From Planctomycetota bacterium (GTDB lineage: Bacteria; Planctomycetota; Planctomycetia; Gemmatales; Gemmataceae): DNA of 49,090 nucleotides. Shown in pieces: positions 8,355 to 43,641 of the stretch. The stretch spans positions 1 to 49,090 of the forward strand of contig JAIOPV010000243.1 in NCBI GenBank assembly GCA_021413735.1, in the 5' to 3' direction. Position 1 is the stretch's first letter, and each line of letters begins with the position of its first letter. The notes under the pieces were generated by a model, which had not been told where the DNA came from, searched no databases, and saw only the letters and a list, made by a program, of their open reading frames with translations. A program made the position numbers and the translations under genes.

Positions 8355-8593
8355 AATCTTGTGAGCGTCGAGGCGTGAGCCCGGCGGTGATAGCGAACGG
8401 GTGACGATCATTTATCTAGCCCCACGGTTGCCCGTGGGATCAAGCAGTCTACCCGGAGATCGTAACGGGTCGGGCCGACCCTGTCTCCTGTTTGACCTTG
8501 CTCCCGGTGGGGTTTACCGAGCCGACGAGTCACCTCGTCGCTGGTGCGCTCTTACATTAAGGGCTTTCGCCCCGCACCGTTTCACCCTTACCT

Positions 8594-8678
8594 CCAACGC
8601 GGAACTCGGAATGCGGAATTCGGAACGAAAGACAATCTTGCTTTAATTCCGCGTTCCGCCCTCCGAGTTCCGCGTTGG
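8594..8678. repeat. Inverted repeat forming rnpB P12
   Basis: CCAACGCGGAACTCGGA (8594-8610) pairs exactly with TCCGAGTTCCGCGTTGG (8662-8678). The inner parts pair imperfectly through GCGGAA and TTCCGC words. In RNase P RNA this is the place of the short P12 hairpin, between AAACCGCC and GGTAAGGGTGAAA. The repetitive GGAAC/CGGAAT wording resembles an intergenic repeat rather than a normal P12. Confidence 0.8.
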
Positions 8679-8803
8679 GTTGGCGGTTTACTTTCTGTTG
8701 CACTTTCCCGCCCGCTGGCGGTTCAGGCCGGGGGGCCCAAACCGTTACCGGGGGTGGACGTTATCCACCACCGCGCCCTTTGGAGCCCGGACTTTCCTCC
8801 CCC

Positions 8804-8904
8804 TTGGGAAAGGATGAAGGATGAACGATGAAGGATGAATTGAAGACAAAGGCAGAGCCTCGTTTTGTTTCATCCTTCATCGTTCATCCTTCATCCTTTC
8901 CCAA
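8804..8904. repeat. 36-bp perfect inverted repeat in rnpB P3
   Basis: The arms at 8804-8839 and 8869-8904 are exact complements, made of repeated GGATGAA/TTCATCC words, with a 29-nt loop. In the minus-strand RNA this lies between GATCGCCGC and GGGGGAGGAAAGTCC, the P3 position, where most bacteria have a short hairpin. Confidence 0.85.
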
Positions 8905-9022
8905 AGCGGCGATCATCCAGCCGACCGACAGATCCGAAACGACATCGTACAAGGACGACCTCGCTTCGAGAATAGACGCTGATTCACCTTTCCGGTTCGC
9001 TCGTGCGCCGCAAGATAACGAT

Positions 9023-9949
9023 ATGTCAACGGTTTCGCTCGAATGGTTCGCATACCCACCCCCGGAATTCGCCGGCGGTGTCATCACCGTTGGGAACTTC
9101 GACGGAGTCCACCTCGGACACCGGGCGCTCGTCGCTGAAGCGAAGAAACTCGCCCGCAGCTTCGGCGGTCCCGCGGTTGCCGTGACGTTCGACCCGCCAC
9201 CGCATCAGGTGTTGCACCCCGGACCCATCCGACCGCCACTCACCACGCTCGCCGATCGCGCAGAACTGCTGCACGCTGCGGGAGCGAATCACGTCGTGAT
9301 CCTGCAAACAAGCCCGTCGTTGTTGGCACTCAGTCCAGAGGCGTTCTTCGAGGATGTGATGGCCCGTCAACTCGGCGCGAAAGGCATCGTCGAAGGTTAC
9401 GACTTCCGCTTCGGCCGCAACCGCGCCGGAACGAACGCCACACTTCGCGAACTGTGCGACGCGGCGGGCCTGGCTTGCGAAGAATTGCCGCAGGTGAAAC
9501 ACGCCGACGAACCCGTATCGAGCAGTCGCGTGCGTGCGGCGATTGTAGCCGGCGATGTGCGGCGTGCCACGGAATTGCTGGCCCGACCGTATCGAATCAC
9601 GGGGAATGTCGTCACGGGTGCGAAGCGTGGCCGCACCATTGGCTTCCCCACAGCGAACCTCGCAGACGTGCCAACGGTGTTACCTGGCAACGGTGTCTAT
9701 GCGGTGCGAGCAGCGGTCGAAGGTAGAATGTGGCGAGCGGCTGCGAATGTTGGCCCGAACCCGACCTTCGGTGAAGATGCCCGCAAGATCGAGGTTCACT
9801 TGCTCGACTTCACCGGCGACATCTACGGCAAACCGATGACGGTCGAGTTCGTGGCGAGGCTTCGCGAAACCCGCCCGTTCGGTGGCGCGGCCGAATTGGT
9901 CGAACAGTTGAAACGCGACATCGAAGGCGCGAAACACGCACTCGGTTGA
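9023..9949 (+). CDS. ribF: Bifunctional riboflavin kinase / FAD synthetase
   Basis: 308 aa; phosphorylates riboflavin to FMN, then adenylates it to FAD. N-terminal FAD synthetase domain: GNFDGVHLGH (24-33) for ATP binding, TFDPPPHQV, GYDFRFG (125-131) and SSSRVR (167-172). C-terminal riboflavin kinase domain from ~190: TGAKRGRTIGFPTANL (198-213), NGVYAV and NVGPNPTFG, where the Asn of PTANL and the following loops bind substrate and Mg-ATP. The ATG at 9023 fits the family; the open frame upstream runs through rnpB and is not coding. The ribosome binding site is weak. The gene is divergent from rnpB, ~90 nt away. Confidence 0.95.
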   Translation: MSTVSLEWFAYPPPEFAGGVITVGNFDGVHLGHRALVAEAKKLARSFGGPAVAVTFDPPPHQVLHPGPIRPPLTTLADRAELLHAAGANHVVILQTSPSLLALSPEAFFEDVMARQLGAKGIVEGYDFRFGRNRAGTNATLRELCDAAGLACEELPQVKHADEPVSSSRVRAAIVAGDVRRATELLARPYRITGNVVTGAKRGRTIGFPTANLADVPTVLPGNGVYAVRAAVEGRMWRAAANVGPNPTFGEDARKIEVHLLDFTGDIYGKPMTVEFVARLRETRPFGGAAELVEQLKRDIEGAKHALG

Positions 9950-16315: not shown

Positions 16316-16369
16316 CGTTGTAAGTCACGGTTTGACGGCACGAATTGCAGCCATTGTTTTGACTCCGAA

Positions 16370-16547
16370 AGAGTCGGACAACATAGCCCAGGGCAACGCC
16401 CTGGGTTCGCGATCTCACCCCATGATCTTCCAGTCTGAAAGACTGGGACAAGCGTGATGTCGCAGTCTTTCAGATTGCACGTTTGATGGACCGTCGAACC
16501 CGGGGCGTTGCCCCGGGCTATGTTGTGCCAGCCTTTCAGGCTGAAAA
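16370..16547. repeat. Composite inverted-repeat element (CATAGCCC type)
   Basis: Two 32-nt arms, 16378-16409 (ACAACATAGCCC...GGGTTCG) and 16495-16526, are complementary with two mismatches; each arm also contains its own small palindrome around GGGCAACGCCC. Between them is CCAGTCTGAAAGACTGG (16430-16446) and related CAGTCTTTCAG, and after them GCCTTTCAGGC. Such sequences are, from memory, abundant in planctomycete genomes and are often mistranslated as small proteins. The gap 16316-16709 holds nothing else recognisable. Confidence 0.8.
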
Positions 16548-16709
16548 CCAAGGCTGCGTCCCAAGAGCAGAGTCGGGAGTTGATCGCGATTGCTTGATGT
16601 GCTTCGGCGTCGATGTGAGGCTGGTTGAGCCAAGTCGCGGTGTCGACGCAGTGAGCGGGTGGTTTGTTCGTGCAAACAAAACCCATCTTCGGCAGCGGAG
16701 GACGCACTG

Positions 16710-18505: not shown

Positions 18506-18507
18506 AT

Positions 18508-18560
18508 CTAGCCGCTTGCGGCGTAGCGTGACTCTGATCCGCTACGCCGCAAGCGGCTAG
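18508..18560. repeat. 21-bp perfect inverted repeat (GCCGCTTGCGGC family)
   Basis: Arms 18508-18528 and 18540-18560 are exact complements with an 11-nt loop, starting 2 nt after the stop of the pentapeptide gene. The same GCCGCTTGCGGCG word occurs just after stop codons at 28398, 40308 and 46451, which suggests a 3'-end or terminator-like role. Confidence 0.75.
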
Positions 18561-18621
18561 ACCAACACGAGCAGTTCATATCCTGACAGTGTGGAATTGT
18601 TCTCCCGACTCAGGGGGCGTG

Positions 18622-22470: not shown

Positions 22471-22572
22471 GTGTTTAGTGATTGGTGTTTCGTGTTTGGA
22501 GAAAGCCACCAAGCCCGTTTCACCACCGCTGACGCGATGTTCAAAACACTAAACTCCAAACACTAAACACCA
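22471..22572. repeat. GTGTTTAGTG inverted repeat between gspE and gspF
   Basis: GTGTTTAGTG (22471-22480) and following GTGTTTCGTGTTTGG on the left face CACTAAACTCCAAACACT and CACTAAACAC on the right. The palindrome is imperfect, with a ~45-nt loop. It fills the whole gspE-gspF gap and ends 3 nt before the gspF ATG, so any fold would hold the gspF start region. Confidence 0.7.
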
Positions 22573-24420: not shown

Positions 24421-24484
24421 TGTCCGAGCCTGAGCGCCAAGCGAGGGGCACGTTTGAACCTCGCTTGGCGCTCAGGCTCGGACA
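24421..24484. repeat. 26-bp perfect inverted repeat after gspG
   Basis: The arms at 24421-24446 (TGTCCGAGCCTGAGCG...) and 24459-24484 are exact complements with a 12-nt loop, starting 9 nt after the gspG stop. No T-run follows. It could protect the gspG message 3' end or reduce read-through into gspH. Confidence 0.78.
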
Positions 24485-25569: not shown

Positions 25570-25757
25570 AGCCCCCTCACCCGCGACTCGAAGACTCGTC
25601 GCGACCTCTCCCCCCGAAATCGAGGGAGAGGTGGGGCAATCTGGCTTCTCTTGGAGCTTATTGGTTGGCTGGAGCTGAAGATAAGACGCGGCGCACCCAC
25701 CTCTCCCCCGATTTCGGGGGGAGAGGTCGGCGAGGCTTTGCGAGCCGGGTGAGGGGG
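25570..25757. repeat. Long inverted repeat between gspI and gspJ
   Basis: Outer arms CCCCCTCACCC (25572-25582) and GGGTGAGGGGG (25747-25757) flank inner 34-nt arms at 25602-25635 and 25696-25729 that pair with a single mismatch (CGACCTCTCCCCCCGAAATC type). It occupies most of the 270-nt gap, and no gene is seen there. The sequence type resembles dispersed repeats of planctomycete genomes from memory. Confidence 0.8.
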
Positions 25758-31648: not shown

Positions 31649-31670
31649 GACGCAGAGTGGATTTTCACGA

Positions 31671-31725
31671 GCCCGGAGGGTGAGCACGGGTCATGTGTGA
31701 CCCGTGCTCACCCTCCGGGCTTTTT
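31671..31725 (+). terminator. Strong intrinsic terminator after the gsp cluster
   Basis: GCCCGGAGGGTGAGCACGGG plus TCA (31671-31693) pairs perfectly over 23 bp with 31698-31720, with a TGTG loop, followed by TTTTT (31721-31725). It lies 22 nt after the gspM stop and closes the secretion operon. Confidence 0.8.
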
Positions 31726-39385: not shown

Positions 39386-39460
39386 GTTTAGCCGCGAGCC
39401 GAAGGGAAGCGTCACACCGAACACTTTGGTGTCACGCTCCTCTTCGAGTCGCGGCTAAAC
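39386..39460. repeat. 33-nt inverted repeat before the SirB1-like gene
   Basis: Arms 39386-39418 and 39428-39460 match at 28 of 33 positions (outer GTTTAGCCGCGA / TCGCGGCTAAAC perfect), with a 9-nt loop. It starts 18 nt after the oxidoreductase stop and ends 6 nt before a TATAAT. Confidence 0.78.
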
Positions 39461-43354: not shown

Positions 43355-43454
43355 TTTGATTCAGTGGTGTGAAGATGGCTTTTTCATCCTGAGCACAGTT
43401 CCCCAGAAGTACGGGCCAAATCGAGGTAGGCAGCATGGCTGTGTGGAAATCATT

Positions 43455-43520
43455 GTGAGCGTCGAAGCGGAAGCTCGACGCTCACGAAATCCACCGTCGG
43501 CCTGACGGCTCGACGCTCAC
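43455..43520. repeat. GTGAGCGTCGA inverted repeat cluster
   Basis: GTGAGCGTCGAAGC (43455-43468) faces GCTCGACGCTCAC at both 43473-43485 and 43508-43520. Another GTGAGCGTCGAGGC is at 8361-8374, at the 3' edge of rnpB. Smaller hairpins (GGGGTCACAGACCCC near 43588) follow. No gene is seen in 43276-43641. Confidence 0.7.
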
Positions 43521-43641
43521 ATGAACCCACTGTTTGTGTGCCACCAAAACCAATTGCGACAACAACAACGGGTTCATGTATGAGAGGCGGGGTCACAGAC
43601 CCCGGCTACAACACTGTTCCCCGACGTCTGGGGACTTGTAC

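What the first reader, a model, noticed from the sequence alone, without database searches (positions are those of the whole stretch)
8594..8904. RNase P RNA carries two long palindromic inserts in P3 and P12
Reading the minus strand against the standard type A layout, all conserved blocks are present, but the P3 position is a 36-bp perfect hairpin made of repeated GGATGAA words and the P12 position is an ~85-nt hairpin made of GGAACTCGGAATGCGG-like words. Both look like the dispersed intergenic palindromes elsewhere in this window, and neither like a normal short helix. This suggests that the repeat elements insert into, or grow within, tolerant helices of an essential RNA. Long P12 helices and a P13 insert have, as I recall, been reported for Gemmata-type RNase P RNAs; a repeat-derived P3 would be the newer part.
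Basis: partly seen in the sequence, partly recalled or inferred. Interest (0 to 1): 0.72.

Follow-up and report, generated by a model that had tools for sequence, protein, structure and literature searches.

The report
Repeat hairpins invading RNase P RNA
In this bacterial family (the Gemmata group), two arms of an essential catalytic RNA have repeatedly been taken over by long hairpins built of seven-letter repeat words that often also lie scattered through the same genomes, and even close relatives can carry unrelated words at the same spot.

Summary
The two hairpins are real: P3 (8804-8904) has 36 perfect pairs of GGATGAA words; P12 (8594-8678) is made of CGGAACT/CGGAATG words. Both words are dispersed in the same genome: the P3 hairpin matches 21 other places, 19 nearly full length; the P12 word has 35 hits (2 are its own arms) against 1 in the control.

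The pattern is general. In 70 rnpB genes of the family, P12 carries period-7 word hairpins in 28 of 70 and P3 in 7 of 66, with many different words. Close relatives can differ completely: G052 and G053 have 98% identical cores but unrelated P12 inserts. Of 12 rnpB word cases, 9 have at least 5 further copies in their own genome, 1.5 expected; 3 do not.

Closest known: heptamer STRRs in cyanobacterial rnpB, inverted heptamers in Xanthomonas. New: recurrent, swapping occupation of two helices.

The parts
8393..8930 (-). rnpB (type A RNase P RNA) as far as it is conserved: from P1 5' strand (8930) to ...GGCTAGATAAATGATCGTCACCCGTTCGC (8393)
   Evidence: RF00010 match, 208.7 bits; places; compared with relatives
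8804..8904 (-). P3 made of a GGATGAA-word hairpin: 36-bp perfect stem, 29-nt loop
   Evidence: 21 other places in the genome match it by BLAST, 19 of them nearly full length
8781..8799 (-). conserved block GAGGAAAGTCCGGGCTCCA (CR-I, P4 5' strand; names recalled) directly after P3
8594..8678 (-). P12 made of a CGGAACT/CGGAATG-word hairpin: 32-nt arms with 4 mismatches, 21-nt loop
   Evidence: word dispersed in genome, in part as hairpins
8580..8592 (-). conserved block GGTAAGGGTGAAA after P12
8361..8392 (-). foreign sequence in place of the rnpB 3' block: one arm of the dispersed palindrome family GTGAGCGTCGAGGCGTCAGCCCGACGGTG
   Evidence: similar arms, 3-5 substitutions in 29, at window 43492 and in L123, L126, L133, L136, L137
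7332..8354 (+). OB-fold + HD domain protein (YhaM-like exoribonuclease; that name is inferred), neighbour on the rnpB 3' side; same neighbour in G022
   Evidence: Pfam; 93% identical in L221
9023..9949 (+). ribF (FAD synthetase/riboflavin kinase), divergent from rnpB; start codon approximate
   Evidence: Pfam (scanned as 8990-9949); synteny
22471..22570 (.). dispersed heptad hairpin with GTGTTT words, the word found in P3 of G013 and in P3 and P12 of G024
39386..39460 (.). dispersed palindrome GTTTAGCCGCGAGCC..., same sequence type as P12 in G028 and (weaker) G029
   Evidence: likeness read by eye

Best explanation
The P3 and P12 hairpins are copies of dispersed palindromic repeat elements of this genome (two arms of degenerate heptamer words around a loop of variable length) that landed in the tips of two helices tolerating length change. 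Such hairpins are gained, replaced and lost repeatedly in rnpB across Gemmataceae; P12 is the common site, P3 a rarer one nearly confined to the window's genus. Shown: the element structure, dispersal, period 7, occupation of the same helices by unrelated words, replacement between some close relatives, association with the genome's own word set. Inferred: that entry is by copying an existing element (insertion or hairpin-templated copying) rather than only by word growth in place, and that the arms are kept complementary by a DNA-level process, since rnpB copies are no better paired than non-RNA copies. The hairpins are probably transcribed and tolerated as outward-pointing rods, or trimmed after transcription. 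No mover enzyme is identified.
For: Dispersal. Same-type hairpins in 28 of 70 P12 and 7 of 66 P3; period 7 in 32 of 54 long helices against 0.3 in shuffles. Replacement: G052/G053 core 0.98, P12 0.47, equal to the mean of 66 between-genus long P12 pairs (0.47, highest 0.58); G012 against G009/G010 core 0.92, P12 0.50-0.51. Sister species G000/G016 (support 100/99) share the P3 element but carry different P12 words. Word-genome association: 9 of 12 against a permutation mean of 1.5 (0 of 20000 as high) or 2.7 among the 40 word-bearing genomes (p 1e-4). G016 P3 and P12 loops are inverted copies, 19 of 21 letters (read). Loop tips in G000 share AAGACAA with one another (8 of 53 occurrences lie in loops, 0.28 expected; motif chosen post hoc). 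Mismatch rate 7.9% in 34 rnpB hairpins against 7.6% in 17 dispersed ones (p 0.96).
Against: Three of 12 word cases (G052, G063, G066) have only 0-4 further exact copies, so some inserts may have grown in place or come from lost copies. One of the 9 (G000, GCGGAANN) counts mostly coding GCGGAAGG repeats with a control of 37; without it 8 of 11. G000 and G016 are sisters, so cases are not all independent. Not every close pair differs: G009/G010 (core 0.96) and G038/G039 (core 0.89) both keep P12 identity 0.75. Loops of dispersed GATGAA copies differ from one another, unlike a standard transposon family. The AAGACAA tip is not significant in G010 (1 of 30 occurrences in loops, 0.08 expected, p 0.08). 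Target-site duplications were not looked for. Mature RNA was not seen.
Confidence: 0.67

Rival explanations
1. In-place growth: P3 and P12 are tolerant helices that lengthen by replication slippage and fold-back copying of short words, with a general period-7 bias of the same replication machinery acting everywhere in the genome. The rnpB words resemble genomic words only because the same process makes both.
For: Loops differ among copies with the same word; G066 and G052 have no further exact copies of their rnpB word; arms stay complementary to the same degree inside and outside rnpB.
Against: Genome-specific word sharing in 9 of 12 cases; near full-length matches of the P3 hairpin at 19 other places; P3 and P12 loops of G016 are inverted copies of each other.
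Confidence: 0.23
2. Ordinary lineage-specific helix extension kept for RNase P function (stability, protein or membrane contact), with the repeat words coincidental.
For: P12 is longer than 60 nt in 42 of 70 and P3 in 12 of 66 genomes; between G000 and G016 the P3 stem differs at three pairs on both arms and at one pair by G-U (read from the alignment); some close pairs keep their P12 (G009/G010, G038/G039).
Against: Sequence is not conserved between two 98% identical rnpB cores; species of the same genus have P3 of 16-19 nt or P12 of 20 nt; pairing is no better than in non-RNA copies.
Confidence: 0.06
3. For the missing 3' end only: assembly collapse. The true genome has the complete rnpB and a palindrome in the spacer before the next gene; the assembler (or library) lost the stretch between rnpB and one palindrome arm.
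For: The break lies at the inner end of a palindrome arm; gene order ribF / rnpB / OB-HD gene is the same in G022, where the spacer also holds a hairpin; the rest of the gene aligns with few non-standard pairs outside P1; RNase P is essential (established knowledge) and no other copy of the 3' block was found in the draft.
Against: No reads are available; a real recent deletion, with an intact copy in the unassembled ~4%, would look the same.
Confidence: 0.7

Closest known systems
STRR heptamers in rnpB of heterocyst-forming cyanobacteria (Vioque 1997, PMID 9254706; seen only as a reference-list title in PMC2858038; paper not held; that STRRs are heptamers is recalled)
   Same: short tandem repeats that are dispersed in the genome lie inside the RNase P RNA gene
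   Different: here the repeats are palindromic (both arms), fill P12 and also P3, and use many different words with replacement inside genera; the helix used in cyanobacteria could not be checked here
Inverted pairs of GGGAATC heptamers in Xanthomonas (Rehm 2015, PMC4692102; passages read)
   Same: heptamer repeats in high copy, 70-75 cases per genome as close convergent pairs able to form stem-loops
   Different: one G-rich word is the paper's subject; the main text has 0 mentions of rnpB or RNase P
REP / RAYT palindromes, GTAG and CGTC tagged (PMC3733652; passages read)
   Same: short dispersed palindromes, also in Planctomycetes, possibly moved by Y1 tyrosine transposases
   Different: arms are heptad words here; tags were not examined; single-contig genome G010 has a heptad P12 but no Y1_Tnp hit
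Planctomycete RNase P RNA studies (Butler and Fuerst 2004, PMID 15280311; Butler 2007, PMID 17328750; seen as reference titles only; the 2004 paper is not held; the 2007 one was not tried)
   Different: content could not be read, so how much of the P12 part is already described is open
rRNA intervening sequences, e.g. IVS of Coxiella in 23S helix 45 (PMC4990558, start of abstract in a search listing) and Rickettsia palindromic elements (recalled; mentioned in PMC3733652)
   Same: selfish or palindromic elements sitting inside a helix of a functional RNA (IVS) or inside genes (RPE)
   Different: the Coxiella IVS is 428 nt with an ORF; that IVS are excised is recalled; processing of the present hairpins is unknown

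Membership tests
RNase P RNA, bacterial type A (RF00010) | score over the curated cut-off | tested here: met
   208.7 bits against 100
RNase P RNA, bacterial type A (RF00010) | conserved 3' block (CR-V / P4 3' strand) and P1 3' strand | tested here: not met
   missing in the window copy, present in 11 of 11 relatives printed with a tail; a 12th, G015, gave no tail
Dispersed palindromic repeat of the same genome | many further copies in the genome, above control | tested here: met
   P3: 21 other places by BLAST; 49 hits, 4 of them its own, against 0. P12: 35 hits, 2 of them its own, against 1
Dispersed palindromic repeat of the same genome | copies have the same inverted-repeat form | tested here: met
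   11 distinct GATGAA hairpins besides rnpB from 30 loci; 10 CGGAA-type hairpins besides rnpB from 30 loci
STRR (heptamer repeats) | unit of 7 nt | tested here: met
   32 of 54 long P3/P12 helices have best period 7, 1 period 6, 21 none; shuffles 0.3
STRR (heptamer repeats) | direct tandem array without palindromic partner | tested here: not met
   arms are inverted repeats
REP elements moved by RAYT | terminal GTAG/CGTC tag and association with a RAYT gene | not tested
   Y1_Tnp only counted (11 matches in G000, 0 in G010); tags and gene neighbourhoods not examined
MITE / transposon | target-site duplication and conserved termini | not tested
   no empty site from the same species was available; arms differ by word between copies of different families

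The most novel reading that the evidence does not exclude
Gemmataceae carry an undescribed class of copying DNA hairpin whose arm words are free to change: the constants are palindromy, a 7-nt step and perhaps an AAGACAA-like tip. These hairpins use helices of structural RNAs as landing sites and replace each other there. The 30-40 bp double-stranded stem in P3 would then be an RNase III substrate (recalled property of RNase III), so mature RNase P RNA in these bacteria may be a nicked, multi-piece RNA, like fragmented 23S rRNA.
Probability: 0.2. Interest if true: 0.82.

Novelty: new variant of a known kind. Interest (0 to 1): 0.6.

Why it matters
An essential catalytic RNA is being used as an insertion and replacement site by repeat hairpins, often enough that sister species differ. 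This gives a fixed, alignable location at which to watch how heptamer palindromes, whose origin in bacteria is poorly understood, are born, copied and replaced. It makes a clear prediction about RNase P RNA processing (retained or cut), and may help to explain weak covariance-model scores for rnpB in this group (inference).

Tried and rejected
Whole-genome census in a script was not possible; replaced by pattern searches and 400-kb samples. The sample census gave 62 hairpins with arms of 24 nt or more in 449 kb of G000 (window included), 27 in 400 kb of G010 and 2 in 400 kb of G071. The G000 stretches came from contigs already known to hold word hits, so that density may be high; G010 and G071 were sampled evenly.

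Search for a second rnpB or a displaced 3' piece in G000: none found.

RAYT as mover: Y1_Tnp matches occur in 79 of 95 family genomes but in none of the contigs of G010, which has a heptad P12; not pursued as the cause.

Selection for pairing in rnpB: not seen. Loop conservation among copies with one word: not seen, apart from a short tip motif that is enriched in G000 but not significantly in G010, and is found near the middle of 11 of 54 long rnpB helices, 9 of them in the window's genus.

Weak points of my own steps: the ribF query was translated out of frame; its ribF rows are replaced. identities use my own boundaries for P3/P12 (regular expressions), so a few bases at the ends are uncertain. 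Of 77 family genomes over the cut-off, 70 were parsed (7 not fetched: G072, G073, G076-G079, G082); P3 could not be delimited in 4 of 70. Thresholds for 'word hairpin' are mine (period match 0.55 or more). Outside the family, 49 loci from 48 distinct genomes, of about 147, were looked at; 29 were the best-scoring matches and 20 were picked partly for length, so no frequency is claimed there.

Literature: nine paper searches answered, one failed (33). No row shown in them was a paper on repeat hairpins in planctomycete rnpB; the lists are capped, the library holds open-licence papers only, and the two older papers that I tried to open were not held.

Full report
What is there. The window carries a type A RNase P RNA gene on the minus strand (RF00010, 208.7 bits). 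P3 is a hairpin at 8804-8904 with 36 perfect pairs of GGATGAA words, and P12 a hairpin at 8594-8678 with 32-nt arms and 4 mismatches made of CGGAACT/CGGAATG words. Both fold far better than shuffles (z -13.9, -9.6).

The statement that all conserved blocks are present does not hold. For 12 relatives of the genus besides the window I printed the gene tail; 11 gave one (G015 did not), and all 11 have ACARAACCCGGCTTACA (CR-V and P4 3' strand; names recalled) followed by the P1 3' strand. In the window the conserved sequence ends at 8393, and the next 32 bases (8361-8392) match one arm of another dispersed palindrome of this genome, with 3-5 substitutions in 29, at window 43492 and in the sampled stretches L123, L126, L133, L136 and L137. 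A search of the whole draft (9.80 Mb, 293 contigs, 95.7% complete) for a 20-mer of the missing block with up to 3 mismatches gave two hits, both with 3 mismatches, control 1; the CM search found no second rnpB. The neighbourhood is not a gross chimera. In G022 (contig length equal to that of Gemmataceae bacterium CJuql4) the order AP_endonuc_2-type gene / ribF / rnpB / OB-fold+HD gene is the same, the last gene 93% identical, and there the spacer between rnpB and that gene also holds a hairpin. In the window only 6 bases lie between that gene (end 8354) and the palindrome arm. The rest of the gene aligns with few non-standard pairs outside P1, and one P2 pair differs from sister G016 on both strands (GGTC/GACC against GATC/GATC, read). 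So either the assembly collapsed at the palindrome, or a recent deletion took the 3' end. I favour collapse, because the RNA is essential (established knowledge). P3 and P12 have counterparts in relatives and are not put in doubt by this.

Are the words dispersed? Yes. The P3 word (21-mer, up to 2 mismatches) has 49 hits in the genome, 4 of them in P3 itself and some overlapping, against 0 for the reversed control. BLAST of the whole P3 hairpin finds 22 distinct places including itself; 19 of the 21 others cover at least 80 of its 101 bases. Copies are themselves hairpins with different loops (11 distinct ones besides rnpB from 30 loci). The P12 word (20-mer, up to 3 mismatches) has 35 hits, 2 of them the arms of P12 itself, against 1 control hit; 10 further hairpins of that type came from 30 loci. 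A simpler pattern for P12 was not usable in G000: coding GCGGAAGG repeats dominate (23 hits) and the control was higher (37).

Is it general? Of 95 family genomes, 83 had an rnpB match and 77 were over the cut-off. I parsed 70. P12 is longer than 60 nt in 42 of 70, and P3 in 12 of 66. By a fixed period-7 criterion, 28 of 70 P12s in 9 of 30 genera and 7 of 66 P3s (genera g1 and g24) are word hairpins. The best period of the 5' half is 7 in 32 of 54 long helices, 6 in one and none in 21; shuffles give 0.3. The words differ widely: GTGTTTGG, AGTGGGC, AAAAAGG, GTCCGTA, TTAAAAG, GATGAAG, TTTAGGG, TCATTCG and others. G028 and, less exactly, G029 carry in P12 a non-heptad palindrome of the type at window 39386-39460 (likeness read by eye). 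Outside the family I looked at 48 distinct genomes, partly picked for length: G223 and G213 have clear heptad hairpins in P12, G156 and G096 weaker word-rich long P12s; most of the others have a short P12.

Turnover. G052 and G053 (same genus) have rnpB cores 98% identical and a P12 identity of 0.47, which is the mean of 66 between-genus pairs of long P12s (highest 0.58). G012 against G009/G010: core 0.92, P12 0.50-0.51, P3 0.65-0.87. Against this, G009/G010 (core 0.96) and G038/G039 (core 0.89) keep P12 identity 0.75, and genera with short P12 keep it unchanged. In the rnpB core tree, G000 and G016 are sisters (100/99) and share the GATGAA hairpin in P3, while P12 is CGGAA-type in G000 and GATGAA-type in G016. 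Other members of the same genus have P3 of 16-19 nt (G015, G017, G020, G021, G023) or P12 of 20 nt (G011). So hairpins are gained, replaced or lost within a genus.

Where do they come from? For five exact three-word patterns counted in all 95 genomes I asked whether a genome with the word in rnpB has at least 5 copies elsewhere: 9 of 12, against a permutation mean of 1.5 over the 70 parsed genomes (0 of 20000 as high) and 2.7 among the 40 that carry any of the words (p 1e-4). Misses: G052 (0 elsewhere), G066 (0), G063 (4). One of the nine is the unreliable G000 GCGGAANN count; without it 8 of 11. G000 and G016 are not independent. In G016 the P3 and P12 loops are inverted copies (19 of 21 letters, read). 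Loop tips in G000 share AAGACAA: 8 of 53 occurrences in the sample lie in hairpin loops, 0.28 expected; in G010 1 of 30, 0.08 expected, not significant. The motif was picked from overlapping data and is A-rich, so the first figure overstates. Together this favours copying of existing elements over growth in place, without excluding the latter for some inserts.

How does it work? Shown: form, dispersal, period, replacement. Inferred: copying by an unidentified route, and arm complementarity kept at DNA level, because the mismatch rate is 7.9% in 34 rnpB hairpins and 7.6% in 17 dispersed ones (p 0.96). Between G000 and G016 the P3 stem differs at three pairs on both arms and at one pair by G-U (read), but non-RNA copies are paired as well, so this is no proof of selection on the RNA. 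Y1_Tnp (RAYT-like) proteins are common (79 of 95 genomes; 11 matches in G000) but not found in single-contig G010, which has a heptad P12. P3 and P12 are among the helices left unaligned for lack of conservation in a study of plastid-type RNase P RNAs (PMC4264200, passages), and P12 has been called sometimes dispensable, with cyanobacteria as the example (PMC2858038, passages).

Comparison with the known. Repeats inside rnpB of heterocyst-forming cyanobacteria are in print (Vioque 1997, title only), as are inverted heptamer pairs in Xanthomonas (PMC4692102, passages), heptanucleotide repeat elements in Geobacter metallireducens (PMC2700814, passages) and two planctomycete RNase P RNA papers (titles only). 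In the rows shown by the searches made (open-licence papers only) I did not see the repeated, genus-internal replacement of P12 and P3 by genome-specific palindromic words. I therefore rate it a new variant of a known kind; the unread planctomycete papers could shrink the P12 part.

Names. 

Noticed in passing
window 8361-8393: rnpB 3' block (CR-V, P4 3' strand, P1 3' strand) is missing and replaced by one arm of a dispersed palindrome; block not found in the draft genome with up to 3 mismatches.
   Followed up: partly
window 16347-16557 and 16499-16543: The Rfam Acido-Lenti-1 hit (37.4 bits, cut-off 37) lies in one arm of a 63-nt, 81% inverted repeat, so that RNA family may itself be a dispersed hairpin here.
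   Followed up: no
window 18507-18561, 24421-24484, 25602-25729, 31670-31721, 43454-43521; also L121-L140: Several other palindrome families (e.g. CGCCGCTTGCGGCGTAGCG, GTCCGAGCCTGAGCGCCAAGCGAGG, CGACCTCTCCCC...) recur; about one hairpin with arms of 24 nt or more per 7 kb in the G000 sample.
   Followed up: partly
L012 (G000:C155 near 8448): A GATGAA hairpin lies directly before what looks by eye like a tRNA gene (GCGGGTGTAGCTCAGCGGTAGAGC...), another structural RNA next to such an element.
   Followed up: no
L108 (G094) P12: P12 words are TTTAGGG, identical in letters to the plant telomere repeat (recalled); surely coincidence, but it shows how free the word is.
   Followed up: no
L067 (G016) P3 and P12: The two loops are inverted copies of each other (19 of 21 letters), the best single sign of copying inside or into one gene.
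   Followed up: partly
loops of hairpins in the G000 sample and rnpB of genus g1: Hairpins with unrelated arm words share an AAGACAA-like tip in G000, not significantly in G010; cause unknown.
   Followed up: partly
L098 (G040) P12, 156 nt; L105 (G035) P12, 241 nt: Very long P12 in which my finder reported no clean hairpin; G035 has AAAAAGG-like words at its ends. Nature unresolved.
   Followed up: no
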